The notes under the pieces are model-generated. The model saw only the letters and a list, made by a program, of their open reading frames with translations. It was not told where the DNA came from and did no database searches. A stretch of DNA of 64,000 nucleotides from Micromonospora sp. DSM 45708 (lineage in GTDB: Bacteria > Actinomycetota > Actinomycetes > Mycobacteriales > Micromonosporaceae), in the NCBI RefSeq assembly GCF_039566955.1, contig NZ_CP154796.1, positions 2,604,001 through 2,668,000 of the forward strand. Reading direction: 5' to 3'. How positions within the stretch are numbered: the first letter of the stretch is position 1; each line of letters opens with the position of its first letter. Below, piece by piece: positions 50,033 to 64,000 of the stretch. Position numbers and translations under genes: made by a program.

Positions 50033-51462
50033 GAGCGCCCTCCGGAGAACTTGAAGACCTGCTTGGGCAGCCGGTACGCCAGGTCGACGATGGTCTCGGC
50101 GGCCTCGTCGCCGTCCAGCCGGTGCTCGGCGACCAGGCGGGCCAGGAAACCGGCGTCGACCCGGCGGGCCACGTCGTGGCGGACCGGGATGGAGCAGAAC
50201 GCGCGGGTGTCGTCGACGAACCCGGCGGTGTTGTAGAAGCCGGCGGTCTCGGTGACCGCCTCCCGGAACCGCCGCAGCACCTCCGGCGAGTCGAGGAACC
50301 ACCAGGGCGCGCCGAGCCGCAGCGCGGCGTAGCCGCCGGCGAGCGGCGCCAGCTCCCGGGTGAACGTGTCCTCGTCGAGCGTGTAGAGCACCACGGTCAG
50401 CCGCGGGTCGTTGCCGTGCGCGTCCAGCAGCGGCGCGAGCCCGTGCACGTAGTCGGTGGCCTGCGGCACGTCGCCGCCGACGTCGCGGCCGTGCCGGGCG
50501 TGCAGCCAGCGGTTGTGGTTGCGCACCGCGCCCGGGTGCAACTGCATCACCAGGCCGTCGTCGAGCGACATCCGGGCGAACTCCAGCAGCATGTGCGCCC
50601 GGAACGCCTCCGCGTCGCCCGCGTCGGCGAGGCCGCGCCGGCCCTTGTCGTACAGCGCCGCCGCCTGCGCGGGGTCGAGCGCGAGGGTACGCGCGGTCGG
50701 GTGCCCGTGGTCGGACGAGGTCGCGCCGGCCGCGATGAACGCCGCCCGGCGCCGCCGCAGCGCGGCCAGGTAGCCGGCGTACGTGCCGGTGTCCTCGCCG
50801 GAGACGTCGGCGAGCCGGTCCACGTTGGCCGCCCAGCCGTCGAACTCCATGTCCACCACGTCGTCCGGGCGGAACGTGGTGACCACCCGCCCGCCCGGCC
50901 CGCCCCAGCCGTCGGCGGCGAGCTTGGCGTGCCGGCCCAGGTCGTCCAGGGGCGACTCGGTGGTGGCGAGCACCTCGATGCCGAAGCGGGTGAACAGCTC
51001 CCGGGGCCGGAACGCCGGCTCGGCGAGGCGGGCGGCGAGCGCGTCGTAGACGGTGTCGGCGGTGGCCGGGCCCAGCGGCGTGTCCACGTCGAACACGTTC
51101 CGGAACGTCTGCTCCAGCCACAGCCGCGACGGCGTGCCCCGGAACAGGTGCCAGTGCGCGGCGAAGCGCCGCCAGATGGTCCGCCCGTCGGTCTCGACCG
51201 GGCTGCCGTCGACGCTCGGCACGCCCAGCTCGGCCGGCGGCACGCCCTGGCTGAGCAGCATCCGGGTCAGGTAGTGGTCGGGCACGATCAGCAGCCGGGC
51301 CGGGTCGGGGAACGGGCGGTCCTCGGCCAGCAGCGCCGGGTCGACGTGCCCGTGCGGGGAGATGATCGGCTGCGTGGCCGCCAGGGCGTACAGCTCGCGG
51401 GCCAGCGCGCGTTGGCCGGGCTCGGCGGGCAGCAGCAGATCGCTGGGGGAGATGATCGGCAC
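50029..51462 (-). CDS. uxaC: Uronate isomerase
   Basis: 477 residues, typical of UxaC. It converts D-glucuronate to D-fructuronate and D-galacturonate to D-tagaturonate. Landmarks: PIISPHGHVDPALLAED with the metal His pair, HWHLFRGTPSRLWLEQTF, ATTESPLDDL, ARTLALDPAQA, LLEFARMSLDDGLVMQLH and YNTAGFVDDTRAFCSIP. GTG 51462 is 17 bases after the MocA-type stop. The metal site and general base appear intact. Confidence 0.92.
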   Translation of the reverse strand: MPIISPSDLLLPAEPGQRALARELYALAATQPIISPHGHVDPALLAEDRPFPDPARLLIVPDHYLTRMLLSQGVPPAELGVPSVDGSPVETDGRTIWRRFAAHWHLFRGTPSRLWLEQTFRNVFDVDTPLGPATADTVYDALAARLAEPAFRPRELFTRFGIEVLATTESPLDDLGRHAKLAADGWGGPGGRVVTTFRPDDVVDMEFDGWAANVDRLADVSGEDTGTYAGYLAALRRRRAAFIAAGATSSDHGHPTARTLALDPAQAAALYDKGRRGLADAGDAEAFRAHMLLEFARMSLDDGLVMQLHPGAVRNHNRWLHARHGRDVGGDVPQATDYVHGLAPLLDAHGNDPRLTVVLYTLDEDTFTRELAPLAGGYAALRLGAPWWFLDSPEVLRRFREAVTETAGFYNTAGFVDDTRAFCSIPVRHDVARRVDAGFLARLVAEHRLDGDEAAETIVDLAYRLPKQVFKFSGGRS

Positions 51463-51479
51463 GGAAGCGGGCTCCTCGG

Positions 51480-52808
51480 TCAGGGCAGGGTGAGCAGGTC
51501 GGCGACCCGGACGGGCGCGCCGGTCTCCAGCGAGCGGTTGGCGGCCAGGCCGGTGAGCAGTGCGAGCGCGCCGTCGTACGCGGTGGCGGCGCGGCCGAGC
51601 GGATCGGGTTCGCCGCCGAGCAGCACCCGGGTCATCCGGGCGTCCGCGCCGCCGTGCCCGCGCCGGGTCCAGCCCTCCACTCCGATCTCCACCGGCGGCG
51701 CCCAGAACGGTCGCAGCGTGAGCCGGGCCGCGCCGCGTTCCACCGCGGCCTCGTCGCCGTGCAGCGCGGCGCCCTTGAGCGCGGACGCGCCGCCGGGGCT
51801 GACGTGGTCGCTCTCGGTGACCTCCAGTTCGAGGCGGCCCCGGCTGCCGTTGACCATCACCCGGTAGCCCTCCCAGGGCGCGTACGCGGTGAGGTGGTAG
51901 GTCATGGTCGCGCCGGTGGAGTAGCGGGCCAGCACCGCGAGGTCGTCCTCGATGGTCACGCCGGGGGCGAACACGTTGCGGTCGCGGTGGTAGCCGTCCT
52001 CGGCCTCGGCGTCGAGGTACAGCTCGCGCAGCCGGGGGTGCTCGGCCAGCCGCAGCGCGAACGGGTCGTCGTCGGCGGCGGGGGCGCCGTGCGCCCGCTC
52101 GTAGTCGCGGGCGTAGCCGTGCCGGCGGCCGGTCTCGCCGTAGAAGAACAGCCGGCCGGCCGCGTACACCTCGACCGGTCGGGCGTCCAGCCACCAGTTG
52201 ACCAGGTCGAAGTGGTGGCTGGCCTTGTGCACGAGCAGGCCGCCGGAGGTGGCCTTGTCCCGGTGCCAGCGGCGGAAGTAGTCGGCGCCGTGCCGCACGT
52301 CCAGCAGCCACTCGAAGTGCACCGAGCCGATCTCGCCGACCGCGCCGTCGGCGAGCAGCCGGCGGAGCTGCTCGTGCAGCGGGTTGTAGCGGTAGTTGAA
52401 CGCGACGGTGACCTGCCGGCCGGTCTCCGCGACCGCGTCCAGGATGCGCCGGCAGCGGGGCGCGTCGACAGTCATCGGCTTCTCGGTGACCACGTCGCAG
52501 CCGGCCCGCAGCGCGGCGGTCACGTACTCGTCGTGGGTGACGTCGACGCTCGTCACCAGCACCACGTCGACCCGCTCCTTCGCCAGCATGGCGGCGAAGT
52601 CGCCGGCGGCGTACGTGGGCACCGTCGGGTGGCCGAGCTCGGCGAGCCAGCGGTTGTGCGCGTCCATCCGGGTCTGGTTGACGTCGGCCAGGGCGACCAG
52701 TTCGGCGGTGTCGGCGTGGTCGAGCGCGAGCGCGCGGACGAACATCTCGGCGCGCGCCCCGGCGCCGACCAGGGCGTGGCGGACCCGTTTCCGGGCCGGT
52801 GGTGACAT
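51480..52808 (-). CDS. Gfo/Idh/MocA family oxidoreductase, first gene of the catabolic operon
   Basis: 442 residues. RHALVGAGARAEMFVRALAL, VDVVLVTSVDVTHDEYV and the EKP motif in DVVTEKPMTVD place it in the family. The C-terminal domain (GSVHFEWLLDVRHGADYFRR, SGGLLVHKASHHFDLVNWWL with the conserved His) suggests action on a sugar acid or oligosaccharide. It is only distantly related to the second MocA-type protein at 45986. ATG 52808 sits next to the LacI operator at 52830. Confidence 0.82.
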   Translation of the reverse strand: MSPPARKRVRHALVGAGARAEMFVRALALDHADTAELVALADVNQTRMDAHNRWLAELGHPTVPTYAAGDFAAMLAKERVDVVLVTSVDVTHDEYVTAALRAGCDVVTEKPMTVDAPRCRRILDAVAETGRQVTVAFNYRYNPLHEQLRRLLADGAVGEIGSVHFEWLLDVRHGADYFRRWHRDKATSGGLLVHKASHHFDLVNWWLDARPVEVYAAGRLFFYGETGRRHGYARDYERAHGAPAADDDPFALRLAEHPRLRELYLDAEAEDGYHRDRNVFAPGVTIEDDLAVLARYSTGATMTYHLTAYAPWEGYRVMVNGSRGRLELEVTESDHVSPGGASALKGAALHGDEAAVERGAARLTLRPFWAPPVEIGVEGWTRRGHGGADARMTRVLLGGEPDPLGRAATAYDGALALLTGLAANRSLETGAPVRVADLLTLP

Positions 52809-52829
52809 GACGTCGGCCTCCCGCGGTTA

Positions 52830-52843
52830 TGCAAAGGTTTGCA
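52830..52843. promoter_or_regulatory. LacI-type operator O1
   Basis: TGCAAAGGTTTGCA is a perfect palindrome with the CG/GG centre typical of LacI/CcpA-like operators. It lies 22 bases before the MocA-type start, over the minus-strand promoter. Confidence 0.8.
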
Positions 52844-52981
52844 GCCGAAGAAACCACGCCGGCCGATACGACGTCAACGGTCGATGGACATCCCGCCCTA
52901 TCAATCCGCATTGGTGCGTTTTTATGCACTCCCCGGGAGCGGTACCGCAATCGAGCCGTAACAATGGACCGTTGACACCGG

Positions 52982-52995
52982 CGCAACCGTTTGCA
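52982..52995. promoter_or_regulatory. LacI-type operator O2
   Basis: CGCAACCGTTTGCA differs from O1 at three of 14 positions and shares TTTGCA and the central G. It lies 51 bases before the lacI start. A weaker GTGC...GCAC dyad (52914-52929) lies between the two, so looping across the 150-base divergent region is possible. Confidence 0.75.
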
Positions 52996-53045
52996 TTAAT
53001 TGGCGACACCCGTGACCCCCACCACATCGGACGAGGGAGCCCGCC

Positions 53046-54092
53046 GTGCCAGCCACCATCCGGGACGTCGCCCGGGCCTCCGGCGTGCACATCTCCACCG
53101 TCTCCCGCACGTTCTCGGCCCCGCACCTGGTCAACCCGGAGACCCGGGTCCGGGTGCTGGCCTGTGCGGAGGACCTCGGCTACCGGCCCAACCGGGCCGC
53201 CCGGGCCCTGATCACCGGCCGGACGCACAACATCGGCCTGATCGTGGCCGACATCGCCAACCCGTTCTTCCCGCCGCTGATCAAGGCCGCGGAGGGGCAG
53301 GCCCGGCACCGCGACTACCACGTGTTCGTGGCCGACACCAACGAGGACGTGGTCGCCGAGGAGGACCTGGTCCACGCGCTCGCCAAGCAGGTCGACGGCG
53401 TGCTGCTGTGCAGCCCCCGGATGAGCAACAGCCTGATCGAGCAGGTCAGCCGCGAGGTCCCGGTGGTGGTGATAAACCGCCAGGTCGCCGGCCTGCCCTG
53501 CGTGATGATGGACGTCGGGCAGGGCGCCCGGTCCGCGATCGAGCACCTGCTCGGCCTCGGCCACCGGCGGATCGCGCTGCTCGGCGGCCCGCGCGGCTCC
53601 TGGACCGCCCGGGAGATGCGCCGGGCCGCCTCGGCAGCCGCCCGGGGCGGCGGCGCCGAGCTGACCCTGCTCGGCCCCAACCAACCCACCGAGACCGGCG
53701 GCGGCGCGCTCGCCGACCAGGTACGCCGCAGCGGCGTCACCGCCGTGCTCGCCTACAACGACCTGATGGCGATCGGCCTGATCGAAGGGCTGGACGCGCT
53801 GGGGCTGCGGGTGCCCCAGGACGTCAGCGTGGTCGGCGTCGACGACATCGCGCTGAGCCGGCTCACCCGCCCCAAGTTGACGACGGTGGCCACGCCGACC
53901 GCGGCCGCCGGCCGGACGGCCGTCGACATGCTGCTGCAACTCGACTCCGACGCGCCGCGTGGCGTGCGGGGCCGGGGCGCGTCGGCCGGCGACCGTCGCA
54001 CCACCGCACAGGTAATGCTCCAGACCGTACTGGTCGTTCGCGACTCGACCGGGCCCGTTCCCGAGCCCGGTCGGGACGGCGCCGGGGCCTGA
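53046..54092 (+). CDS. LacI family transcriptional regulator of the uronate locus
   Basis: 348 residues. The N-terminal HTH (TIRDVARASGVHISTVSRT) and hinge helix (YRPNRAARAL) are canonical, followed by a periplasmic-binding-protein-like sensor: HNIGLIVADIANPFFPPLIKA, VDGVLLCSP, VNRQVAGLPCVMMD and DVSVVGVDDIALSRLT. The extra 40-residue C-terminal tail is disordered. GTG 53046 start. Divergent from the catabolic operon, it presumably represses both arms until a uronate or oligogalacturonide binds. Confidence 0.9.
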   Translation: MPATIRDVARASGVHISTVSRTFSAPHLVNPETRVRVLACAEDLGYRPNRAARALITGRTHNIGLIVADIANPFFPPLIKAAEGQARHRDYHVFVADTNEDVVAEEDLVHALAKQVDGVLLCSPRMSNSLIEQVSREVPVVVINRQVAGLPCVMMDVGQGARSAIEHLLGLGHRRIALLGGPRGSWTAREMRRAASAAARGGGAELTLLGPNQPTETGGGALADQVRRSGVTAVLAYNDLMAIGLIEGLDALGLRVPQDVSVVGVDDIALSRLTRPKLTTVATPTAAAGRTAVDMLLQLDSDAPRGVRGRGASAGDRRTTAQVMLQTVLVVRDSTGPVPEPGRDGAGA

Positions 54093-54099
54093 GCAGGTG

Positions 54100-54131
54100 G
54101 CCCGGGCCCGCATAGCGGTGCGGACCCGGGC
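54100..54131 (+). terminator. Terminator or attenuator after lacI
   Basis: GCCCGGGCCCGCA (54100-54112) and TGCGGACCCGGGC (54119-54131) form a 13-bp stem with one mismatch and a six-base loop, seven bases after the lacI stop. It would reduce readthrough into the transporter genes, so these may have their own promoter in 54132-54189. Confidence 0.65.
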
Positions 54132-54189
54132 GACCCGTGGACGGCCACCGGTGACGTCGTCGCCTCCCACAGCCGAGGAGTGAGCGCAG

Positions 54190-55533
54190 ATGCACCCCGC
54201 AACGTCCCCCACCGCCGGCGCACCCGCCGGGCGGACCCACCGTACCCTCCTGTCCCGACGTCGATTCGTCCGTGGTCTCGCCGCCGTCGCGCTGGCCGCG
54301 CCGCTCGCGCTGGGCGCGGCCGGCTGCGGCGACGACGACGCCGCCGGTGACGGCGGCCCGGTCAAGCTCTCCGTCTTCTGGTGGGGTGGCGAGGCCCGGG
54401 CCAAGCTCACCGAGGACGCCCTCGCCCTCTACACGAAGAAGCACCCCGACGTGACGTTCGAGAAGACCTGGCAGGCCAACCAGGGCTACTTCGACAAGCT
54501 CGCCACGCTGACCGCCGGCGGCAACCCGCCCGACCTGTTCCAGATCGACGACAACTACCTGGCCGAGTACGCCGGTCGCAGCACCACACTCGACCTGGGC
54601 AGCTACCGCGACTCCGGCAAGCTCGACGTGTCGAAGTTCCCGAAGAGCCTGCTGGAGTACGGCGTCGTCGACGGCAAGCTCGCCGGGGTGGCCGCCGGGG
54701 AGAACACCCAGGGCCTGGTCTACAACAAGACGCTGCTGACGAAGAACGGGCTGCCGGAGCCGACCACCGGGATGAGCTGGGAGGAGCACATCGCCTGGGC
54801 GGAGCAGGTGGCGAAGAAGACGAAGGTCCCCGGCACCCAGGACCCGAGCGCCGACTACAAGGCGCTCTGGGTCTGGCTGCGCCAGCAGGGCAAGGACCTG
54901 TACAAGGGCAAGGAACTCGGCTTCACGGTCGAGGACGTGACGAAGTGGTTCGAGCTGTGGAAGGGCGCCCGCGACTCCGGCGCCACCCCGACCGCCGACG
55001 TCATCCACCAGGGCAACGCCACCGACATCACCAAGCAGCTCGTGGTCACCGGCAAGGCGGCCACCTCCTGGGTCTGGGCGAACCAGATGCCGGACCTGAA
55101 GAAGAACACCAAGGACGAGCTGGGCGTGGTCGCCTACCCGGGTGACCCGAGCGCCCAGTGGGCCCGCGCCTCCATGTACTGGTCGGTGTTCAAGGGCAGC
55201 AAGCACCGCGACGTCGCGGTCGACGTGATCAACTTCCTGAACAACGACCCGGAGGCGGTCGCGCTGCTCGGCACCGACCGGGGCCTGCCGTCGAACATGG
55301 ACCTGCGGGCCAAGGTCAGTGAGAGCGCCACCGACCCGGCCATGAAGCAGTCCATCCAGGTCGAGTCCGACCTGGCGCAGAAGTTCGGTCCGTCCCCGCA
55401 GGTCCCGATCAAGGGACACAGCAAGGTCAAGTCCGAGCTGACCAAGGCCGCCGAGAACGCCCAGTACGGCCGCGCCACCCCGGCCCAGGCGGCGGAGCAG
55501 TTCGTCACCGCCTGCAAAGCCGCGATCGCCTGA
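54190..55533 (+). CDS. Sugar ABC transporter substrate-binding lipoprotein
   Basis: 447 residues. Twin-arginine motif SRRRFVRGLA (residues 22-31) and lipobox with Cys46 (LGAAGC). Mature part begins VKLSVFWWGGEARAKLTEDA and has FQIDDNYLAEYAG and the MYWSVFKGSKHRDVAVDVIN block of family 1 binding proteins. It binds the sugar carried by the two permeases that follow; given the locus, an oligogalacturonide or uronate-containing saccharide is expected. GGAGTGAGCGC precedes ATG 54190. Confidence 0.88.
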   Translation: MHPATSPTAGAPAGRTHRTLLSRRRFVRGLAAVALAAPLALGAAGCGDDDAAGDGGPVKLSVFWWGGEARAKLTEDALALYTKKHPDVTFEKTWQANQGYFDKLATLTAGGNPPDLFQIDDNYLAEYAGRSTTLDLGSYRDSGKLDVSKFPKSLLEYGVVDGKLAGVAAGENTQGLVYNKTLLTKNGLPEPTTGMSWEEHIAWAEQVAKKTKVPGTQDPSADYKALWVWLRQQGKDLYKGKELGFTVEDVTKWFELWKGARDSGATPTADVIHQGNATDITKQLVVTGKAATSWVWANQMPDLKKNTKDELGVVAYPGDPSAQWARASMYWSVFKGSKHRDVAVDVINFLNNDPEAVALLGTDRGLPSNMDLRAKVSESATDPAMKQSIQVESDLAQKFGPSPQVPIKGHSKVKSELTKAAENAQYGRATPAQAAEQFVTACKAAIA

Positions 55534-55559
55534 CCCCTCGACGGAAAGGATCCGGATCC

Positions 55560-56540
55560 GTGGCCCTCACCACGGCGCCCGGCCGGAGCCCACGAACCGG
55601 ACCGGTCGGCCCCCGCCCCACGCGGCGCGGGGCCGGCCGGGCCCGGCTCGGCGAGGGCCTGGCAGGGTACGTCTTCCTCTCGCCCTGGCTCATCGGACTG
55701 ATGGGCATCACGGCGCTTCCCATGCTGCTCTCGCTCTGGCTGAGCTTCACCGACTACGACATCCTCACCCCGCTGTCCGAGGTGCGCTGGGTCGGGCTGG
55801 CCAACTACGAGCGGATGTTCACCGCCGACCCGTCGTACTGGCACGCGGTGCGCGTCACGCTGACGTTCGCGCTGGTCGCCGTGCCGCTGAAGCTGGCCGC
55901 CGCGCTCGGCGTGGCACTGCTGCTCAACCGCACCTGGCGCGGCGTCGGACTGTTCCGGGGTCTGTTCTACCTGCCGTCGCTGCTCGGCGGCAGCGTCGCG
56001 CTGGCCATCGTCTGGGTGAACATGTTCAACCGGGACGGCGCGTTCAACTCGTTCCTCGCGCTCTTCGGCGTCGAGGGGCTGCCCTGGGTCGCCGACCCGG
56101 ACTGGGCGCTCCAGACGCTGATGGTGCTGGCGATCTGGCAGTTCGGCGCGCCCATGGTGATCTTCCTGGCCGGGCTCAAGCAGGTCCCCGTCGAGCTGTA
56201 CGAGGCGGCCTCGGTCGACGGCGCCGGCGCCTGGCGCAAGTTCCGCGCCGTCACCCTGCCCATGCTCTCCCCGGTGATCTTCTTCAACCTGGTGCTGGAG
56301 ACCATCCACGGCTTCCAGGGCTTCACCGCCGCGTTCGTGCTCAGCAACGGCACCGGCGGCCCGGTCGACTCCACGCTGATGTACACGCTCAAGCTCTACA
56401 TCGCCGGCTTCACCGACCTGGAGATGGGCTACGCCTCGGCGATGGCCTGGGTGTTCCTGCTGGCCATCGCGCTCATCACGGCCGTGCTCTTCAGCACCGG
56501 CCGGTTCTGGGTGCACTACTCGGACGGAGACGACTCGTGA
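55560..56540 (+). CDS. Sugar ABC transporter permease (MalF/UgpA type)
   Basis: 326 residues, with about six membrane segments after a 35-residue cytoplasmic Arg/Pro-rich start. The EAA loop is LYEAASVDGAGAWRKFR followed by VTLPMLSPVIFF. GTG 55560 is preceded by GGAAAGGAT. Together with the next gene it forms the channel for the pectin-related importer; its ATPase is likely a shared MsiK-type protein encoded elsewhere. Confidence 0.88.
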   Translation: MALTTAPGRSPRTGPVGPRPTRRGAGRARLGEGLAGYVFLSPWLIGLMGITALPMLLSLWLSFTDYDILTPLSEVRWVGLANYERMFTADPSYWHAVRVTLTFALVAVPLKLAAALGVALLLNRTWRGVGLFRGLFYLPSLLGGSVALAIVWVNMFNRDGAFNSFLALFGVEGLPWVADPDWALQTLMVLAIWQFGAPMVIFLAGLKQVPVELYEAASVDGAGAWRKFRAVTLPMLSPVIFFNLVLETIHGFQGFTAAFVLSNGTGGPVDSTLMYTLKLYIAGFTDLEMGYASAMAWVFLLAIALITAVLFSTGRFWVHYSDGDDS

Positions 56541-57400
56541 CCGCCGCCCCGGCCCGCCACCGGACGGGCAACCGGCAGGCGCTGCGCCTGCTGGTGCTCG
56601 TGGCGATCGTGGCGGTGGTGCTCTATCCGCTGATCTGGATGCTCGGCACCTCGGTCAAGTCACCGGCCGAGATCGTCAACAACATCGGCCTGTTGCCGGA
56701 GGAGTTCACCCCCGGCAACTACGCCGAGGGCTGGACGAACTTCGACGTCAGCTTCGGCCGGTTCTTCCTGAACAGCGCCTTGGTCAGTCTGCTCACCGTG
56801 GTCGGCAACGCGCTGTCCTGCCTGCTGGCCGCGTACGCCCTGGGGCGGTTGCGGTTCCGGCTGCGCAAGGCGTGGTTCACCGTCATGATCGGCACCCTGC
56901 TGCTGCCCGGGCACGTGCTGATCGTGCCGCAGTACATCCTGTTCCGCAGCCTCGGCCTGGTCGGCGGCGACTGGCCGTACCTGCCGCTGCTCATCCCGCA
57001 CTTCCTGGCCACCGAGGCGTTCTTCGTCTTCCTCATGGTGCAGTTCATGCGCGGCATCCCCCGCGAGCTGGACGAGGCCGCCAAGATCGACGGCGCGTCG
57101 CCGTACGGCGTCTTCCGGCACGTGATCCTGCCGCTGAGCCGCCCCGCGCTGGTCACCACCGCGATCTTCTCGTTCATCTGGACCTGGAACGACTTCTTCC
57201 GGCAACTGGTCTACCTGTCCACGCTGGAGGACTACACCGTCCCGGTGGCGCTGACCCTGTTCATCGACTCGACCAGCCAGAGCGCGGTCGGCCCGATGTT
57301 CGCCATGTCGGTGCTGTCCCTGCTGCCGGTGTTCCTGTTCTTCCTCGCGTTCCAGCGGATGCTGGTCGAGGGCATCAACACCAGCGGGCTGAAGGGATGA
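56537..57400 (+). CDS. Sugar ABC transporter permease (MalG/UgpE type)
   Basis: 287 residues, about six membrane segments. EAA loop: LDEAAKIDGASPYGVFRHV then ILPLSRPALVTT. GTG 56537 overlaps the preceding stop (GTGA). The last segment is followed by VEGINTSGLKG, typical of the carbohydrate family 1 partner permease. It continues into the small membrane protein by ATGA. Confidence 0.88.
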   Translation: MTAAPARHRTGNRQALRLLVLVAIVAVVLYPLIWMLGTSVKSPAEIVNNIGLLPEEFTPGNYAEGWTNFDVSFGRFFLNSALVSLLTVVGNALSCLLAAYALGRLRFRLRKAWFTVMIGTLLLPGHVLIVPQYILFRSLGLVGGDWPYLPLLIPHFLATEAFFVFLMVQFMRGIPRELDEAAKIDGASPYGVFRHVILPLSRPALVTTAIFSFIWTWNDFFRQLVYLSTLEDYTVPVALTLFIDSTSQSAVGPMFAMSVLSLLPVFLFFLAFQRMLVEGINTSGLKG

Positions 57401-58041
57401 ACGCCGAGGCCCCCCGCCGGGACTGGCGGGACACCGTGGCCGAGGCGGCCGACCTGGCGCTGCTCGGCCTCGCCGTGGCGGTGGCGTCGCTGCCGGTGCT
57501 CACGCTCGCCCCGGCCGTCGCCACCGCCTCCGCCGCGCTGCACGACCGGGCCGTCACCGGGAGCTGGCCGCCGGCCCGGACCAACCTGACCCGGTTCGGC
57601 CGCGCGGTACCCGCCGGCACGGCGGTCAGCGCCGTCGTGCTCGCGGTCGCCGCGCTGCTCGCCGTCGACCTGCTGGCGCTGGCCACCGGCCGGGTGCCCG
57701 GCGGCGGGCCCGCCCTGGCGGTCACCGCCGTCGTGGTCGCGGCGCTGCTCGGGTACGCCGGCCTGGTCGCCGTCGCGGTCGGACGCACCGGGGGCCGGGG
57801 CTGGCGACCCGCCGCCCGGTCGACGGCGCGCACCTGCGCGCGGCACCCCGGCGCCTGGGCCGCCGCGGCCGGGATCGGCGGGCTCGCCGCGCTGCTCGCC
57901 GCGCTGGTCACCCCGGTGGCGGTGCCGATCCTCGGCGGGTACGCCCTCGCCGCGCTGCACGCGGTGGACGCCCGACGCCGGGCGCGTGCGCCGGAACCGC
58001 CGGACGCCCGTCCCGCCACGCTCGGGCCGGCGGCGTCGTGA
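57397..58041 (+). CDS. Small polytopic membrane protein, YesL/DUF624-like
   Basis: 214 residues, about five hydrophobic segments. The N-terminal block (DTVAEAADLALLGLAVAVAS then LPVLTLAPAVATASAALHD) is the pattern of YesL-type proteins, which co-occur with carbohydrate ABC importers and have no settled function. ATG 57397 overlaps the permease stop; the gene ends in a GTGA overlap with the next. A Pro/Ala/Arg-rich tail ends the protein. Confidence 0.75.
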   Translation: MNAEAPRRDWRDTVAEAADLALLGLAVAVASLPVLTLAPAVATASAALHDRAVTGSWPPARTNLTRFGRAVPAGTAVSAVVLAVAALLAVDLLALATGRVPGGGPALAVTAVVVAALLGYAGLVAVAVGRTGGRGWRPAARSTARTCARHPGAWAAAAGIGGLAALLAALVTPVAVPILGGYALAALHAVDARRRARAPEPPDARPATLGPAAS

Positions 58042-58928
58042 CCGCCGGCCCCCACGCCGCCGCGGCGGGACCCGCCGTCGACGCCGAGCCCGGCGAGGAG
58101 CGCCTGGTCGTGGCCGGGGTCGAGGTGGCCCGCTACGTGGTCCGCCCCGACCTCGACCCGCGCCACGGCCCCCGGCCCTACCTGCACCCGGTGCGGACCC
58201 GCGCCGGCACCCCGGTCACCGACGCGCTCCCGGCCGACCACGTGTGGCACCTCGGCGCGTCCCTCGCCGTGCAGGACGTGGCCGGCGCCAACCTCTGGGG
58301 CGGCCGGACGTACGTGCGCGGCACCGGCTACACCTGGCGCGACGACCACGGCGTCATCGCCCACACCGGCTGGCGGGACCGGACCGCCGACCGGCTCGAC
58401 CACGACCTCGACTGGCGGGACGCCGACGGCCGGACGCTGCTGCGCGAGCACCGCCGGCTCACCGCCGCGCCGGCCGGGGACGACGCCTGGTGGCTCGACC
58501 TGTCCGCCACCCTCACGTCCGCCACCGGCGCCGACGTCCACCTGGGCAGCCCGGCCACCAACGGCCGCCCCGGCGGCGCCGGCTACGGCGGCTTCTTCTG
58601 GCGGGCGGCCGGCGGCCCGGAACCCCGGGTGTGCACCGCGGACGCGGCCGGCGAGGAGGCGGTCAACGGCTCGGCCGCGCCCTGGCTGGCGCTGTCCGGC
58701 ACCGCGCCGGGCGGCGGCGCGTACACGCTGGTGTTCAGCGGGCTGGGGCCGGGCGACAGGTGGTTCGTCCGTACCGCGATGTACCCGGGCGTCTGCGTCG
58801 CGTACGCGTTCGACCGGCCGGCGGTGGTCGCCGCCGACCGACCCCGCCGCAACCGGCACCGGGTGCTCGTCGTCGACGGCCACCTGGACCGGGCCGAGGT
58901 CGAGCGGCGGCTGGAGGCCGTGCCGTGA
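58038..58928 (+). CDS. PmoA-like protein (DUF6807 family)
   Basis: 296 residues, beta-rich, no signal peptide. RPYLHPVRTRAGTPVTD, the DHVWHLGASLAVQDV segment and NLWGGRTYVRGTGYTW are hallmarks of the misnamed 'methane oxygenase PmoA' family, which is common in sugar-degradation loci and unrelated to particulate methane monooxygenase. Conserved His, Trp and Asp in these motifs suggest a carbohydrate-active enzyme, reaction unknown. GTG 58038 couples it to the membrane protein; GTGA overlap leads to the kinase. Confidence 0.8.
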   Translation: MTAGPHAAAAGPAVDAEPGEERLVVAGVEVARYVVRPDLDPRHGPRPYLHPVRTRAGTPVTDALPADHVWHLGASLAVQDVAGANLWGGRTYVRGTGYTWRDDHGVIAHTGWRDRTADRLDHDLDWRDADGRTLLREHRRLTAAPAGDDAWWLDLSATLTSATGADVHLGSPATNGRPGGAGYGGFFWRAAGGPEPRVCTADAAGEEAVNGSAAPWLALSGTAPGGGAYTLVFSGLGPGDRWFVRTAMYPGVCVAYAFDRPAVVAADRPRRNRHRVLVVDGHLDRAEVERRLEAVP

Positions 58929-59908
58929 GCGGACCGGAGGTCGCCTGCGTGGGGGAGACCATGGTGGTGCTCGCGCCCGACGACGGCGGGCCGCTGGAGC
59001 ACGCCGACCGGCTGGCGGTCGGCGTCGGCGGCGCGGAGTCCAACGTGGCCATGGGACTGGCCCGGCTCGGCCACCGCGCCGCCTGGGTCAGCCGGGTCGG
59101 CGACGACCCGTTCGGCCGCCGGGTGGTCGCCGAGATCGCCGCCGCCGGGGTGGACGTCCGCGCGGTCACCGTCGACCCGGCCGCGCCGACCGGCGTCTAC
59201 CTCAAGGACCCTGGCCCGGCCGGCACCCGGGTCCACTACCACCGCGCCGGATCCGCGGCGAGCCGGCTCGGCGTGCCGGACCTGACCGACCCGCGGCTGG
59301 CCGGGGTGCGGCTGCTGCACCTGTCCGGGATCACCGCCGCGCTCTCCGACTCCTGCCGGGAGCTGCTCGCGTACGCGCTGACCGGGCGGGCGCTGCCCGG
59401 CGCCCGGACCACGTTCGACGTGAACCACCGCCCCGCGCTCTGGCCCGCCGACCGGGCCGCCCCGGTGCTGCGGGACCTGGCCGACCGCGCCGACGTGGTG
59501 CTCGTCGGGCTGGACGAGGCGGCGACGCTCTGGGGCAGCGCCGACCCGGCCGCCGTCCGCGACCTGCTGCCCGGACCGGAGTTGGTGGTGGTCAAGGACG
59601 GGCCGGTCGGCGCGACCGCGCTGCCGCGTACCGGGCCGGCGGTCTTCGTGCCGACGCCCCCGGTGGACGTGGTGGAGCCGGTCGGCGCCGGGGACGCGTT
59701 CGCCGCCGGCTTCCTCGCCGGGCTGCTGCGCGATCTCGACCTGCGCGCCTGCCTGCGGTTGGGTCATCTCACCGCCGCGCCGGTGCTGGCCGCGTCGGGC
59801 GACACCGCGCCGCCGCCCGATCCGGCCGGGATCGCCCGGGCGCTGGCGTTGACGGACCGGGACTGGGCGGTGCCGGCGAGGCGCCGCGACGAAGGGAGCG
59901 GCACATGA
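58925..59908 (+). CDS. kdgK: 2-Keto-3-deoxygluconate kinase (PfkB family)
   Basis: 327 residues. ACVGETMVVLAP, the GGAESNVAMGLARLGHRAAW substrate-site region, GDDPFGRRV and the catalytic VGAGDAFAAGF loop with the anionic-hole Gly and base Asp are PfkB hallmarks. It phosphorylates KDG to KDPG; the KDPG aldolase that follows directly fixes the assignment. A helix (FDVNHRPALW) contacts the sugar. GTG 58925 overlaps the previous stop, and the stop overlaps eda by ATGA. Confidence 0.88.
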   Translation: MSGPEVACVGETMVVLAPDDGGPLEHADRLAVGVGGAESNVAMGLARLGHRAAWVSRVGDDPFGRRVVAEIAAAGVDVRAVTVDPAAPTGVYLKDPGPAGTRVHYHRAGSAASRLGVPDLTDPRLAGVRLLHLSGITAALSDSCRELLAYALTGRALPGARTTFDVNHRPALWPADRAAPVLRDLADRADVVLVGLDEAATLWGSADPAAVRDLLPGPELVVVKDGPVGATALPRTGPAVFVPTPPVDVVEPVGAGDAFAAGFLAGLLRDLDLRACLRLGHLTAAPVLAASGDTAPPPDPAGIARALALTDRDWAVPARRRDEGSGT

Positions 59909-60519
59909 TCGAGCACGACTTCGCACCGCTGTTCGGCGACGGGCGGGTCATGGTGATCCTGCGCGACCTGCCGCCGGAGGAGACGGTCCGGCTCGCGGAG
60001 CTGGCCTGGGATCTCGGCATCGGCGTGGTGGAGGTCCCGATCCGTACCCCGGGGGCGGTGCCCGCGCTGCGCGCCGCGGTCACCGCCGGACGGCGCCGGG
60101 ACCGGCTCGTCGGCGCCGGCACGGTCCGCACCCCGGCCCAGGTCCGCCAGGCGATGAGCGCCGGGGCGGCGTTCACCGTCGCCCCCGGCCTGGACCTGAC
60201 CGTCGCGGACACGGCGCGCGGCTACGGCATCCCGCACCTGCCCGGCGTGGCCACCCCGACCGAGGCGCAGCGGGCGCTCGACCACGGCCTGGTCTGGCTC
60301 AAGGCGTTTCCGGCGGTCAGCCTCGGCCCGGCCTGGTTCCGGGCGGTCGCCGGGCCGCTGCCGGAGGCGCGGTTCGTGGCCACCGGCGGCATCGACGCCG
60401 GCAACGCGGGCGACTTCCTGGCCGCCGGCGTACGCGTGGTGGCGGTCGGCTCGGCGCTCACCGACCCGGCGCAGCTCCCACGCCTGGCCGCGCTCGCCAC
60501 CGGCGACCCGGTCAGCTGA
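59905..60519 (+). CDS. eda: 2-Dehydro-3-deoxy-phosphogluconate aldolase (KDPG aldolase)
   Basis: 204 residues, the standard length. VEVPIRTPGAV contains the catalytic Glu, VGAGTVRTPAQVR the phosphate-binding loop, and LVWLKAFPAVSLGP the Schiff-base Lys. It splits KDPG into pyruvate and glyceraldehyde-3-phosphate, ending the uronate pathway. Last gene of the plus-strand operon; its last 8 bases overlap the convergent membrane-protein gene. Confidence 0.92.
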   Translation: MIEHDFAPLFGDGRVMVILRDLPPEETVRLAELAWDLGIGVVEVPIRTPGAVPALRAAVTAGRRRDRLVGAGTVRTPAQVRQAMSAGAAFTVAPGLDLTVADTARGYGIPHLPGVATPTEAQRALDHGLVWLKAFPAVSLGPAWFRAVAGPLPEARFVATGGIDAGNAGDFLAAGVRVVAVGSALTDPAQLPRLAALATGDPVS

Positions 60520-61276
60520 CGGTGCGGCCGGACGTCGTCACGGTGGTCCGCACCGCCTTGACGATCGCCGGGATCGAGCCGACCAGCAGCACCAGCGCCC
60601 AGATGACCGCCACCACCGCGAAGACCACCGCGCCCAGGTCGTCGACGACGCTGACCAGGATCACCGGCACCAGGCCGTGCAGGAACTGCAACACCACGGT
60701 GCACAGCAGCGTGGTCGACGCCAGCAGCACCAGCCCCCTGTTGCGCAGGAAGCGCGGCTGTGCGGCCAGCAGCAGCCCGGCCCAGACCAGCTTGAGCAGC
60801 AGCGCCAGCCCGAGCAGCACGGCCGCGTCGCCGACCGGGAAGAACCCCCACACCGCGAGGTACGCCAGCGTGCCGAACGGGACCGCCAGGAACAGCGAGA
60901 CCATCACCGTCAGCTCGACGAACGCGACGACCAGCAGCACCAGCGACACCACCAGCAGCACCACCGAGAAGACCAGCGTGGCCGCGCCCTGCACCCGGCC
61001 CTGGACCCGGTCGGGCAGCACCAGGCTCAGCGCGAACAGCCCGGTGGTCCAGAGCGCCACCACGTCGATCAGCGCCAGGTAGCCGGTGCCCCGGCCGGAC
61101 GGCTCGGCCACCGCGCCGACGTCGCCCAGCTCGACGCCGAGCCCGCCGGCGCTGTCCCGCAGCGCGGCGCCCGCGTCCCCGCCGCCGGTCAGCGCCGCCG
61201 CGCCCAGCTCCACGCCCACCACCAGCGCCACCGCCAGCAGCGCCAGCAGCAGGAACGGCTTCCGCAGCTCACCCAT
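60512..61276 (-). CDS. Polytopic membrane protein, last gene of the phage-tail-like operon
   Basis: 254 residues with about seven hydrophobic segments (for example LLLALLAVALVVGVELGAAA and VVLLVVSLVLLVVAF). No family recognised. There is a soluble loop at residues 30-62 (GGGDAGAALRDSAGG). ATG 61276 lies 27 bases after the previous gene, completing a five-gene minus-strand block that includes a tail protein. It may help place or control an injection machine at the membrane, which is speculation from context. Confidence 0.7.
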   Translation of the reverse strand: MGELRKPFLLLALLAVALVVGVELGAAALTGGGDAGAALRDSAGGLGVELGDVGAVAEPSGRGTGYLALIDVVALWTTGLFALSLVLPDRVQGRVQGAATLVFSVVLLVVSLVLLVVAFVELTVMVSLFLAVPFGTLAYLAVWGFFPVGDAAVLLGLALLLKLVWAGLLLAAQPRFLRNRGLVLLASTTLLCTVVLQFLHGLVPVILVSVVDDLGAVVFAVVAVIWALVLLVGSIPAIVKAVRTTVTTSGRTVS

Positions 61277-61303
61277 GTCGCGCCTCCCGGCGGTCGGGCC
61301 CGG

Positions 61304-61780
61304 TCAGGACCGGGCGAGCGTGACCGTGCACCCGCCACCTCCCGGGCACCGCAGGAGCACCTCGGTCTCCCGGTCCACCGCCACCGTCGCCACCGTCGCG
61401 CCGTCCGGCCCCGGCGTGACCTCGTCGGTGACCGTGACGTCCGCGTCGCCGGGCGCGCGGGCGGTCACCTCGAACGGCGTCGCGCCGCGCAGCACCAGCG
61501 TGCGCAGCGCGCCCGGGTCGGCGACGCGCAGCCGGCAGGTGGCGCCGAACGCGACCACCACCCCGTCGGCGGTGGTGGTCGGGTCGGTGGCCGGCGGCCC
61601 GCACGCCACGCCCACCGTCGCCGGGTCCACCGTGCCGGCGCCGCGTCCCAGCCGGGCCAGTGGTCCCGCCCCGGCAGCCGGGTCACCGGGGCCGTCGGGC
61701 CGCCCGGCCACCGCCACCACGTAGAGCACCACCAGCAGCCCGGCCAGCGCGACCACCAGCAGCTTCTGCCGACCGCTCAT
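61304..61780 (-). CDS. Single-pass membrane-anchored protein of unknown function
   Basis: 158 residues: an N-terminal anchor (KLLVVALAGLLVVLYVVAVA, residues 6-25), a Gly/Pro/Ala linker and an exposed beta-rich domain with three Cys (VACGPP, ATCRLRV, LLRCPGGGGC). Topology suggests the C-terminal part is outside. ATG 61780 overlaps the previous stop (ATGA). No similarity is recognised, and its role is unknown beyond the operon context. Confidence 0.65.
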   Translation of the reverse strand: MSGRQKLLVVALAGLLVVLYVVAVAGRPDGPGDPAAGAGPLARLGRGAGTVDPATVGVACGPPATDPTTTADGVVVAFGATCRLRVADPGALRTLVLRGATPFEVTARAPGDADVTVTDEVTPGPDGATVATVAVDRETEVLLRCPGGGGCTVTLARS

Positions 61781-62694
61781 GCTCGGCCGACCGGGGTGAA
61801 CCGGATCTGGTCGACGCCGGCGAAGTAGCGGTCGGTGCCCTGGGTCCGGCTCACCGCCACCAGCGTCAGCCGGTGCGTGCCCCGGGTCAGCTCCAGCGTG
61901 CCCACCTCCACGTCGTCGGTGCGCACCACGGTCGGCGTGAAGCCGAGGAACGTGTCACCCACCTGCCGGCCGTCGACCAGCCAGATGGTGTTCGCGTAGT
62001 CGAACGAGGTGGTGCGCACCGTGGAGAACCGCCAGGTGCCGTCCGCCGGCAGGTCCACCGGCACGGTCACCCGGTCGCCGACCGCCCGGCCCAGAAAGAA
62101 CAGTTGCGCGTCGCCGGACCACGTCACGTCGCAGCAGTTCTCCTGCGCCACCACCTCGGCCTTCGCGGCGGTGGTGGACCGGACCTCGGCGGCGGCCACC
62201 AGCGTCTCCGCCTCCACGGTCACCGCCGCCGGCCGCGGCGGCGACGTCTGTTCCGGGCGGGTCACCAGCCAGACCGCCACGCCGGTCACCACCAGCAGCA
62301 GCACCGCCGCGGCGGCCAACCACGGCCACGGCGTACGCTTCGGCGGCGCGACCGCCCGCACGTCGTACGTCACCCGGCCGCTGGACCGGGAACTCTCCTC
62401 CGGGGCGGTGTTCGCCGAGTACGCGAACCCGGTCATGTCGTACCGCCGGGGCGGGGTGCCGGGCGGCACCGCGAGCCGGACCAGCACCGACACCGATCCC
62501 TGGCCGGGCACCACCCGCTGCGGCTCGGTCACCGTGAACCAGGCCCGCTGGCTGCCCTCGCCGGGCGCCACGTCGAACACCACGGTGTCCGGCGCCGGTC
62601 CCGGGTTCGACACGGTGAAGGTCAGCTCCCCGGCGTTGCGGGCGTCCAGGGTGAACTGTCCGGCGGCGGCGACGACTGTCCATTCGGTGGTCAT
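61777..62694 (-). CDS. Bitopic membrane protein with Ig-like and carbohydrate-binding-like domains; CisA-like candidate
   Basis: 305 residues. The N-terminal about 110 residues form a beta-sandwich (LTFTVSNPGPAPDTVVFDV, SVLVRLAVPPGTPPRRYDMT) likely cytoplasmic. A single membrane helix follows (WPWLAAAAVLLLVVTGVAVW, near residues 118-137), then an exposed domain (GTWRFSTVRTTSFDYANTIW, GTHRLTLVAVS) resembling CBM6/35 sandwiches. Streptomyces contractile injection systems use a single-pass protein, CisA, to link particle and membrane; this protein has comparable topology, but homology is not shown here. ATG 62694 overlaps the tail gene stop. Confidence 0.6.
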   Translation of the reverse strand: MTTEWTVVAAAGQFTLDARNAGELTFTVSNPGPAPDTVVFDVAPGEGSQRAWFTVTEPQRVVPGQGSVSVLVRLAVPPGTPPRRYDMTGFAYSANTAPEESSRSSGRVTYDVRAVAPPKRTPWPWLAAAAVLLLVVTGVAVWLVTRPEQTSPPRPAAVTVEAETLVAAAEVRSTTAAKAEVVAQENCCDVTWSGDAQLFFLGRAVGDRVTVPVDLPADGTWRFSTVRTTSFDYANTIWLVDGRQVGDTFLGFTPTVVRTDDVEVGTLELTRGTHRLTLVAVSRTQGTDRYFAGVDQIRFTPVGRA

Positions 62695-63287
62695 GACGGC
62701 TCCTCGGGCGGCTCGTGGGGCGGGGGTGGGGGCACGTGCGCCCGGCCGGCCGCGCGTACCGGCCCGGGCGGGGGTGGGTCGTCGGCGGGGCCGACCACCT
62801 CGACGGTGACCGCGGCCGGTTTCTCCGCCTCGACGATCCGGCCGATCAGCGCCAGCCGGTCCGCGGCGGCCGTCGGCACCCGCACCACCAGGTGGAACGG
62901 CCGGTCCGCCGGCTCGTCCAGCACGAACCCGGTCACCCCGGTGGCCAGCTCCAGCGCGGTGCGCATCCCGTACGGGGTGCCCCGCCAGCGGGCCAGCAGC
63001 GCGCCGTGCGCGACCAGGTCCCGCAGCCGGCCCAGCGGCAGCGGCAGCGGCGCGTCGACGCGCGGCGCGGCGACCACGTGATCCATCGCCACCCAGCGGG
63101 TCAGGTACGCCACGAACCCGTCCGGCGTCCGGTACGGCCCGAACAGCGCGTCGACGTCGGCGAGCACCGCCTCGTCCGGGGCGTGCAGCGCCTCCATCAC
63201 GTCCAGCAGCGCGCCCAGCACGCTGCCCGGGCCGGCGGCCCGCTGGTACGCGGCCGGCAGCAGCCGCTCAATCGCCGTTCGGCGCAT
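62691..63287 (-). CDS. Phage tail protein (P2 gpI-like, TIGR02242-type)
   Basis: 198 residues. RTAIERLLPAAYQRAAG at the N-terminus, LLDVMEALHAPDEAVLADVD, the FGPYRTPDGFVAYLTRWVA core and the YGMRTALELATGVTGFVLDE region fit the small tail/baseplate proteins found in extracellular contractile injection loci and in some phages. It is expected at the baseplate. ATG 63287 lies 20 bases inside the upstream gene. A Pro-rich disordered tail (GRAHVPPPPPHEPPEEPS) ends it. No capsid or lysis gene is seen. Confidence 0.72.
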   Translation of the reverse strand: MRRTAIERLLPAAYQRAAGPGSVLGALLDVMEALHAPDEAVLADVDALFGPYRTPDGFVAYLTRWVAMDHVVAAPRVDAPLPLPLGRLRDLVAHGALLARWRGTPYGMRTALELATGVTGFVLDEPADRPFHLVVRVPTAAADRLALIGRIVEAEKPAAVTVEVVGPADDPPPPGPVRAAGRAHVPPPPPHEPPEEPS

Positions 63288-64000
63288 CCTGCCGCACCAC
63301 CTCGATGTCGTGCTCGCCGGAGCAGAGCAGCCAGGTGCCGGGAACGGTGACCACGTCGGCGGTGGACTGGTTGGCGCTGGCCACCCAGTCCTCGCCGTCG
63401 CCGCTGCGGTACACGCCGCGCTCACCGCCGGCCAGGACCAGCCGCCCGGCGCCGGACGGGTCGGCCGGCGCGGTGGCGGCGATGGCGTCCACCGGCGAGA
63501 ACCGGGTCCGGTCCCGCAGCGGCAGCCCGCAGTTGACCATCACCGGCCGCCACTGCGGCTGCCCGGCGAGGGTGTCCAGCCGCACCACGCCGCCGCTCTG
63601 CGTGGCCGCCAACGCCATCGGACCGCTGAACGCCAGGTCCCGGCAGGTGCCGCCGATCCAACCGGCGGACATCGACTGCCACTGCACGTCGGACTCGAAC
63701 AGCCGGGTGCGGTGGGCGCCCTGGCCGGGCTTCTTCGGGTCGGGCTCGCCCGCGCCGCACCACAGCAGCGTGGCCGGGCCGTCGTACTGCACGGCCAGCA
63801 CCCGGTTGTCCACGTTGGCCAGGCCGACGTGGGTGAACGTGCCGGGGCGGCCGGCCGCGACGGACAGGTAGACGCCGAAGCCGGCCTGCGCGGCGACCGC
63901 CACGCCGGGCGCGCCGCGCTCGGAGACGAACGAGCTCACCGCGTAGAAGCCGCGGTCGGCGTCGGCCGGGTCGACCAGGATCTGCAACGGCACCGCGCCG
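63268..64000 (-). CDS. BNR/beta-propeller-like protein, 5' end outside the window
   Basis: At least 241 residues; the frame stays open to the window edge, so the true start is not visible (GTG 63993 is an internal in-frame codon). Repeated short units of the kind RGVYRSGDGEDW, GVYLSVAAG and RLVLAGGERG resemble BNR or YCF48-like propeller blades. It ends in VVRQDAPNGD, overlapping the tail gene by 20 bases. In this setting it may be a fibre- or baseplate-associated protein. Confidence 0.6.
   Translation of the reverse strand, partial: GAVPLQILVDPADADRGFYAVSSFVSERGAPGVAVAAQAGFGVYLSVAAGRPGTFTHVGLANVDNRVLAVQYDGPATLLWCGAGEPDPKKPGQGAHRTRLFESDVQWQSMSAGWIGGTCRDLAFSGPMALAATQSGGVVRLDTLAGQPQWRPVMVNCGLPLRDRTRFSPVDAIAATAPADPSGAGRLVLAGGERGVYRSGDGEDWVASANQSTADVVTVPGTWLLCSGEHDIEVVRQDAPNGD

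What the first reader, a model, noticed from the sequence alone, without database searches (positions are those of the whole stretch)
60512..64000. Probable edge of a contractile injection system with a CisA-like membrane protein
Seen: BNR-like protein, gpI/TIGR02242-type tail protein, a bitopic protein and two further membrane proteins, all coupled by overlaps. No integrase, capsid or lysis genes are visible. Inference: this is the accessory end of an eCIS locus; 61777-62694, with a single membrane helix between an N-terminal domain and an exposed carbohydrate-binding-like domain, is a candidate for the membrane link that triggers firing in Streptomyces.
Basis: partly seen in the sequence, partly recalled or inferred. 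Interest (0 to 1): 0.8.

Follow-up and report, generated by a model that had tools for sequence, protein, structure and literature searches.

The report
Compact bacterial injection machine with membrane adaptor
The end of this window is one end of a spring-loaded protein injection machine in a soil bacterium, and right behind its base the operon encodes a membrane protein that may tell the machine when to fire: the same idea as CisA in Streptomyces, but apparently built from different parts.

Summary
Positions 60512-64000 are the downstream end of a minus-strand contractile injection system (CIS) operon in a closed Micromonospora genome; tube, spike, baseplate and sheath genes lie within 8.5 kb past the window edge. 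No AAA+ ATPase, said to be invariable in eCIS, is in the locus.

It belongs to a compact CIS clade of Micromonosporaceae, separate from Streptomyces-type (IId) loci in sheath and baseplate trees. The 'BNR protein' is the tail of a baseplate J protein (Cis11) with a propeller-like extension.

Protein 61777-62694 sits where CisA sits, right after cis12, with the same predicted topology (N-in, one helix, C-out). Profile comparison finds no relation to CisA: an Ig-like domain replaces zinc ribbons and disorder inside, and a CBM35/6-type domain replaces an F5/8-type one outside. Its inner domain is the most conserved of 14 operon parts measured (92.5% mean identity). In sister genera the outer domain is PASTA, and seven of those loci have a CHAT protease gene upstream.

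Best reading: an independently built membrane adaptor and wall sensor that recruits cytoplasmic CIS particles for firing. Docking and function are untested.

The parts
60512..61276 (-). m254: polytopic membrane protein, last gene of the operon; relatives in nearly all compact loci
   Evidence: Hydropathy and alignment; found in 54 of 55 loci; no Pfam, NCBIfam or PHROG match
61304..61780 (-). m158: small protein with one N-terminal helix and a predicted outer beta-rich part with a conserved pair of Cys
   Evidence: 54 of 55 loci; overlaps the bitopic gene by 4 nt
61777..62694 (-). Bitopic membrane adaptor candidate: Ig-like domain (6-111), helix (123-145), CBM35/6-type jelly roll (158-301)
62691..63287 (-). 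Cis12-like baseplate wedge protein (TIGR02242/Tail_P2_I); an earlier GTG start would extend it to 63425
63268..64000 (-). C-terminal, propeller-like part of Cis11 (baseplate J, TIGR02243); the gene runs on to 65943 outside the window
   Evidence: Cis11 median 873 aa in 28 compact loci against 649 aa in 13 IId loci

Best explanation
This is the membrane-module end of a compact, ATPase-free, probably cytoplasmic contractile injection system. SHOWN by sequence: the operon encodes sheath, tube, LysM hub, spike, PAAR-like tip, gp25, a Cis11 with a propeller-like extension, Cis12, then three membrane proteins in a fixed order. PREDICTED: the bitopic protein has a highly conserved Ig-like domain inside, one helix, and an exchangeable glycan- or wall-type domain outside (CBM in Micromonospora, PASTA in sister genera). 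INFERRED: the outer domain senses the state of the cell wall or envelope; the inner domain catches free particles by their baseplate, most likely through Cis11 (its propeller-like part) or Cis12; m158 and m254 complete the membrane site; docking triggers contraction at the cell's own membrane, as proposed for CisA in Streptomyces. It works like CisA but is not a recognisable descendant of it.
For: Structural genes of a CIS. Sheath closest to the Streptomyces CIS sheaths (352 and 343 bits; next 307, then 165 and less). Bitopic gene directly after cis12, the place of cisA (PMC12237407, section 3). Predicted topology as CisA: K/R excess before the helix in 22 of 22 (A7) and in 26 of 29 with 3 ties (A1); in A1 all 48 Cys on the outer side; CisA rows 23 of 23 N-in by the same rule. 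Jelly roll outside in both. Inner domain most conserved of 14 parts measured in 42 loci (92.5%; outer domain 68.5%), kept while the outer part changes to PASTA. In 45 of the 47 genomes (of 200) with the inner domain a baseplate J match lies within about 3 kb (hand count).
Against: No interaction, localisation or firing was tested. No profile relation to CisA. Orphan copies of the inner domain exist away from any CIS gene (L135, L146), so the domain is not used only by CIS. Distance correlations did not single out Cis11 or its propeller part as partner. High conservation of the inner domain fits other inner functions too. In S. coelicolor loss of the ATPase abolishes the cell-death effect (PMC10020575, passages), so an ATPase-free system may do something else. 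The cytoplasmic state of the particles is assumed by analogy.
Confidence: 0.6

Rival explanations
1. The three membrane proteins anchor the CIS for outward firing at other cells, as a type VI system does; the CBM or PASTA domain grips the cell's own wall so that the tube can pass through it.
For: Three membrane proteins follow the baseplate genes in fixed order; wall- or glycan-type outer domains.
Against: No T6SS membrane-complex family matched in the scans of these proteins; nearest relatives by sheath are Streptomyces CIS, which act inside the producer (PMC12237407).
Confidence: 0.18
2. The particle is a released extracellular CIS and the bitopic protein is a tail fibre or receptor-binding protein, as was first proposed for SCO4242.
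For: Fibre genes lie at this place in other eCIS, and SCO4242 was detected in purified particles (PMC10020575, section 11 and passages); the outer domain has a CBM fold.
Against: A central membrane helix and predicted N-in topology; [quoted passage not shown]
Confidence: 0.07
3. The bitopic protein, m158 and m254 are an envelope or immunity module carried in the operon (for example protection of the producer), not a trigger.
For: Orphan copies of the bitopic domain occur away from CIS (L135, L146); Hamadaea L055 has two copies in tandem.
Against: Position and translational coupling to cis12; the inner domain is the most conserved part measured, whereas immunity proteins tend to vary (general knowledge).
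Confidence: 0.12
4. The locus is a decayed prophage tail or dead CIS.
For: No ATPase, one tube gene where IId loci have two, shorter sheath (median 408 against 515 aa). One relative (L140) has a sheath call of 110 aa and a split J.
Against: 53 of 73 compact loci hold all nine checked genes at over 75% of length with high identity between species; the few upstream flank genes scanned are not phage genes.
Confidence: 0.03

Closest known systems
Streptomyces coelicolor CIS (CIS-Sc, class IId eCIS)
   Same: Same core genes in the same order; closest sheath by sequence; Cis11 core matches 9gtp_1K; membrane protein gene directly after cis12
   Different: No AAA+ ATPase, no clear Pvc16_N cap, one tube gene, shorter sheath, Cis11 with a C-terminal extension, and two further membrane proteins at the end
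CisA (SCO4242 family)
   Same: Gene position; one helix; predicted N-in/C-out; jelly-roll fold outside
   Different: No zinc ribbon, structured Ig-like N-domain, CBM35/6-type instead of F5/8-type (PF25302) outer domain, no profile similarity
Thylakoid CIS of cyanobacteria and T6SS
   Same: CIS machines tied to a membrane (from PMC12237407, sections 3 and 9)
   Different: tCIS uses an extension of the baseplate and T6SS a trans-envelope complex; here separate membrane proteins follow the baseplate genes
PASTA-domain wall sensors (PknB-type kinases; recalled)
   Same: Sister-genus versions place a PASTA domain outside one helix
   Different: The inner domain is Ig-like, not a kinase

Membership tests
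Contractile injection system (broad) | Sheath, tube, spike, LysM hub, gp25 and baseplate J genes together | tested here: met
   PF04984/PF17482, PF06841, PF05954/PF04717, PF19266, PF04965, PF04865/TIGR02243, all over their curated cut-offs
eCIS as defined in PMC10020575 | AAA+ ATPase in the locus | tested here: not met
   No PF00004 match between 1.72 and 2.76 Mb of the genome (150 of 234 candidates scored); 0 tblastn hits in 77 stretches against 6 of 6 IId loci
eCIS as defined in PMC10020575 | Tail terminator/cap of family Pvc16_N (PF14065) | tested here: inconclusive
   A 227-aa gene at the right place; Pvc16_N only at E 0.023 in the relative L145; hhalign with IId caps 2.2%
Class IId (Streptomyces-type) CIS | Groups with IId loci in trees of core proteins | tested here: inconclusive
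   Compact rows form their own side of a branch (96/100 sheath, 100/98 J) next to IId rows; outgroups few and long-branched
CisA family | Encoded directly downstream of cis12 | tested here: met
CisA family | Single-pass, N-in/C-out membrane protein | tested here: met
   Prediction only:
CisA family | Zinc-ribbon, largely disordered N-terminus | tested here: not met
   Ordered Ig-like domain without Cys
CisA family | C-domain of the NADase_transloc/F5-8 type (PF25302) and sequence kinship | tested here: not met
   No such Pfam match at E up to 1; hhalign 2.9%; fold matches CBM35/6
CisA family | Needed for contraction and firing | not testable with these tools
   Needs deletion and cryo-tomography
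Contractile prophage or tailocin | Capsid, terminase, integrase or lysis genes nearby | tested here: not met
   None among locus genes and about seven upstream flank frames scanned; the downstream flank was read by eye only

The most novel reading that the evidence does not exclude
Micromonosporaceae hold a distinct, ATPase-free intracellular CIS whose trigger is a modular receptor built independently of CisA: a constant Ig-like baseplate-docking domain inside and exchangeable wall-sensing domains (CBM, PASTA) outside, acting with m158 and m254 as a membrane firing site and, in sister genera, wired to a CHAT caspase-like protease for programmed cell death.
Probability: 0.4. Interest if true: 0.85.

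Novelty: new variant of a known kind. Interest (0 to 1): 0.7.

Why it matters
How cytoplasmic CIS are brought to a membrane and told to fire is open; CisA is the one characterised membrane factor that I found, and its signal is unknown. A second, apparently unrelated protein in the same gene position with the same topology would show that membrane triggering is a general need of these machines, met at least twice. The exchange of CBM and PASTA outer domains gives a direct hypothesis for the signal (state of the wall) that deletion and binding tests can check. A CIS clade without the AAA+ ATPase would show that this supposedly invariable part is dispensable, and surveys that require it or Pvc16_N may miss such loci.

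Tried and rejected
Homology of the bitopic protein to CisA: not supported by hhalign; very distant kinship of the two jelly rolls is not excluded. Cap identity by profile comparison: no result. Distance correlation (mirror-tree) for a docking partner: uninformative, since all pairs follow the species tree and the inner domain varies little; its correlation with the propeller-like part (0.54) is not higher than with the Cis11 core (0.63), tube (0.63) or spike (0.62). NCBIfam CIS12_fam (NF053768) as a marker: cut-off reached in 0 of 197 genomes and control hits were two archaea, so it was used only to fetch loci. The 202-aa Gly-zipper protein has an HEDVH motif in all 7 aligned rows, but relatives occur in organisms outside this clade's listed hosts, so it is not claimed as the effector. 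The Pro-rich frame L002:13133-14848 was not settled as gene or not. Fold searches report mostly one domain; absence of other folds is not claimed.

Papers, what I saw: PMC12237407 (outline with abstract, sections 3, 7, 9, passages); PMC10020575 (passages, section 11); PMC13277306 (outline with abstract, section 10); PMC8213781, PMC12210884, PMC12998442, PMC12923769 (passages). Others only as search listings. Recalled, from no call: PASTA domains binding peptidoglycan-type ligands, caspase-like nature of CHAT, WxLIP being extracellular, common superfamily of CBM6/35 and F5/8 domains.

Full report
What was claimed. A reader saw the edge of a CIS locus at 60512-64000 and guessed that 61777-62694 is a CisA-like membrane link, to be supported by sheath, tube, baseplate and AAA ATPase genes in the next 20 kb.

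What is there. The window is positions 2,604,001-2,668,000 of a one-contig, 7.016-Mb genome with one PF04984 sheath match, at 2,675,673-2,675,915. Its bitopic protein is 97% identical to one of Micromonospora sp. NPDC049240. I took 2,660,001-2,700,000 (L002 position = window position minus 56,000). Gene calling by codon bias and family scans give this minus-strand order from upstream: 111-aa membrane protein; 202-aa Gly-zipper membrane protein; 227-aa protein with a CarboxypepD_reg end (cap candidate); sheath 408 aa; tube 160 aa; 1.7 kb with a Pro-rich frame; LysM/CIS_tube 252 aa; VgrG-like spike 523 aa; 112-aa PAAR-like protein (so called by eye; no family match); gp25; Cis11 891 aa; Cis12-like 198 aa; bitopic 305 aa; m158; m254. 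Apart from the 1.7-kb stretch and gaps of at most 55 nt, neighbours touch or overlap. The next gene past m254, ending at 60519 on the other strand, looks like a sugar-catabolism gene (by eye).

The 'BNR-like protein' is the tail of Cis11. TIGR02243 covers residues 135-513, a family with BNR-like proteins covers 630-787 at E 5.7e-8 (below its cut-off); the PDB search gives 9gtp_1K for 270-511 and a BNR protein for 532-567. I did not model this part, so I call it propeller-like. Cis11 has a median of 873 aa in 28 compact loci and 649 aa in 13 IId loci.

Closest relatives. The sheath scores 352 and 343 bits with 8bky/8bl4, sequences shared with 9gtp and 9gts, the CIS-Sc models of PMC12237407; then 307 (9ezm) and 165 or less. 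For comparison I fetched 12 regions and 7 more. In L089, L091, L092, L094 and L095 the gene after cis12 is CisA-like: zinc ribbons, disorder, helix, conserved C-domain; in the window-genus genome G095 (L093) the same architecture can be read in one frame. In L097 and L099 the next gene is on the other strand and no CisA was seen; in L090 none was called.

The ATPase is absent here. The six IId loci (G250, G364, G112, G268, G346, G356) have an AAA+ ATPase upstream of the sheath (Pfam AAA in the two scanned, Pvc16_N caps in the two scanned). tblastn with three of these ATPases finds nothing in 77 stretches: L002, L003, the 55 loci and the 20 regions, of which L135, L146 and L147 are not compact CIS loci; many of the 55 end near the sheath, so only L002 and the 17 compact regions test the upstream side well. 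Genome-wide, 6 of 17 genomes with the compact-type protein have a long match to the ATPase (G364, G203, G252, G312, G235, G291; 234-686 bits), each within about 15 kb of another TIGR02243 match away from the compact locus; the other 11 have only shorter matches (up to 111 bits) to other AAA proteins; G112 was the positive control. In S. coelicolor the ATPase is not needed for normal-looking particles but is needed for hyphal death (PMC10020575, passages), so its absence may matter for function.

The compact clade. Trees of sheath (36 rows) and Cis11 (43 rows) put all compact rows on one side of a branch (96/100 and 100/98). Outgroups were few and long-branched, so I claim separateness, not position. 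Hand count: of 200 Micromonosporaceae genomes, 36 have a full-length bitopic match and 11 more match the inner domain only, 47 of 200; a further one (G301) has a partial match (33-115). Within the window's genus 32 of 41 have the full-length protein. In 45 of the 47 a TIGR02243 match lies within about 3 kb; G303 is split over contigs, and G291 has its J beside it in L140. Clear CisA matches in the genus are G346 and G364, with G095. G364 holds both systems, each with its own membrane protein (L148, L151).

Synteny. In 55 loci fetched with the bitopic protein (55 of 55 by construction), cis12, m158, m254 and Cis11 are each found in 54, spike, gp25 and the 112-aa gene in 48, LysM in 46, tube and sheath in 39, the cap candidate in 34. 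Many stretches end inside the operon, so these are lower bounds. Beyond m254 the neighbours differ between species groups.

Modularity. In 42 loci (nearly all named Micromonospora) the inner domain averages 92.5% identity, the highest of 14 parts measured (gp25 88.7, sheath 87.4), and the outer domain 68.5%. In sister genera the inner domain and helix are kept and the outer part is PASTA plus more: Pfam PF03793 in L134, L136 and L138; L137 and L141-L144 align with them but were not scanned. L139 and L140 have CBM-like outer parts (Pfam CBM_6 in L139 at E 0.0093, below cut-off); a second L140 copy has none; the orphan L146 has InlB-type repeats. A constant docking part with a variable sensor would give this; another inner function could too.

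Link to cell death. In L136, L137, L138, L141, L142, L143 and L144 a gene for a TPR-CHAT protein stands upstream of the cap candidate on the same strand: 84-257 nt away in six, with two small frames between in L136 (Pfam CHAT 117 and 142 bits in L136 and L137). L134 has a relative beyond m254 on the opposite strand. In five Micromonospora regions and in the window genome that place holds the 111- and 202-aa membrane proteins. This suggests, but does not show, a role in regulated death.

Mechanism. Shown: gene content, order, conservation. Predicted: folds, topology. Inferred: sensing outside, docking of the baseplate inside, firing at the own membrane. For CisA a Cis11 contact is predicted but not proven (PMC12237407, section 9). 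Here Cis11 carries an extra propeller-like part, a candidate partner for the Ig-like domain; I could not test it.

In print? Searches of the open PMC library for contractile injection with Micromonospora, PASTA domain (75), CHAT domain (76), Micromonosporaceae (77), TIGR02243 (101) and propeller plus baseplate (98), and for eCIS with Micromonospora (97), showed no description of this system in what I saw of the hits. PMC13277306 studies an effector of M. eburnea in a cluster that it calls SLP-like (abstract, section 10). PMC12923769 notes fibre genes in many actinobacterial eCIS (passages), which speaks for extracellular use in part of the phylum. Subscription papers, preprints and supplementary tables were not searched, so these loci may be listed there.

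Noticed in passing
L136, L137, L138, L141-L144 (regions): TPR-CHAT (caspase-like) protease gene directly upstream of the compact CIS operon in sister genera.
   Followed up: partly
L002:17229-17837 (window frame 73229-73837, outside the window): 202-aa Gly-zipper membrane protein with a conserved HEDVH motif, overlapping the cap candidate by 4 nt; relatives also outside Micromonosporaceae.
   Followed up: partly
L135 (2718-3689) and L146 (2686-3651): Orphan bitopic proteins with no CIS genes beside them; L146 carries InlB-type repeats outside.
   Followed up: partly
L055 and G232:C99: Two bitopic genes in tandem within the compact operon.
   Followed up: no
L140 (G291:C3:382000-401999): Compact locus that looks decayed: sheath called at 110 aa and J split in two; not mended.
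   Followed up: no
L002:18402-19130 (outside the window): LppM-domain gene just upstream of the operon on the same strand (PF21946, 111 bits); similar-sized genes stand at that place in other Micromonospora loci (not scanned).
   Followed up: no
L147 (G095:C1:615000-634999): A further TIGR02243 locus with four large genes (707-1143 aa) in a row and a gp25-like gene; type not identified.
   Followed up: no
window about 50029-60519: Looks by eye like a uronate-type sugar utilisation cluster (LacI regulator, ABC transporter, sugar kinase, KDPG-type aldolase); no family scan was run.
   Followed up: no
L002:13133-14848 (outside the window): Pro-rich low-complexity frame between tube and LysM genes; a stretch of about 0.7-1.9 kb without a confident gene lies there in the compact loci compared.
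   Followed up: no
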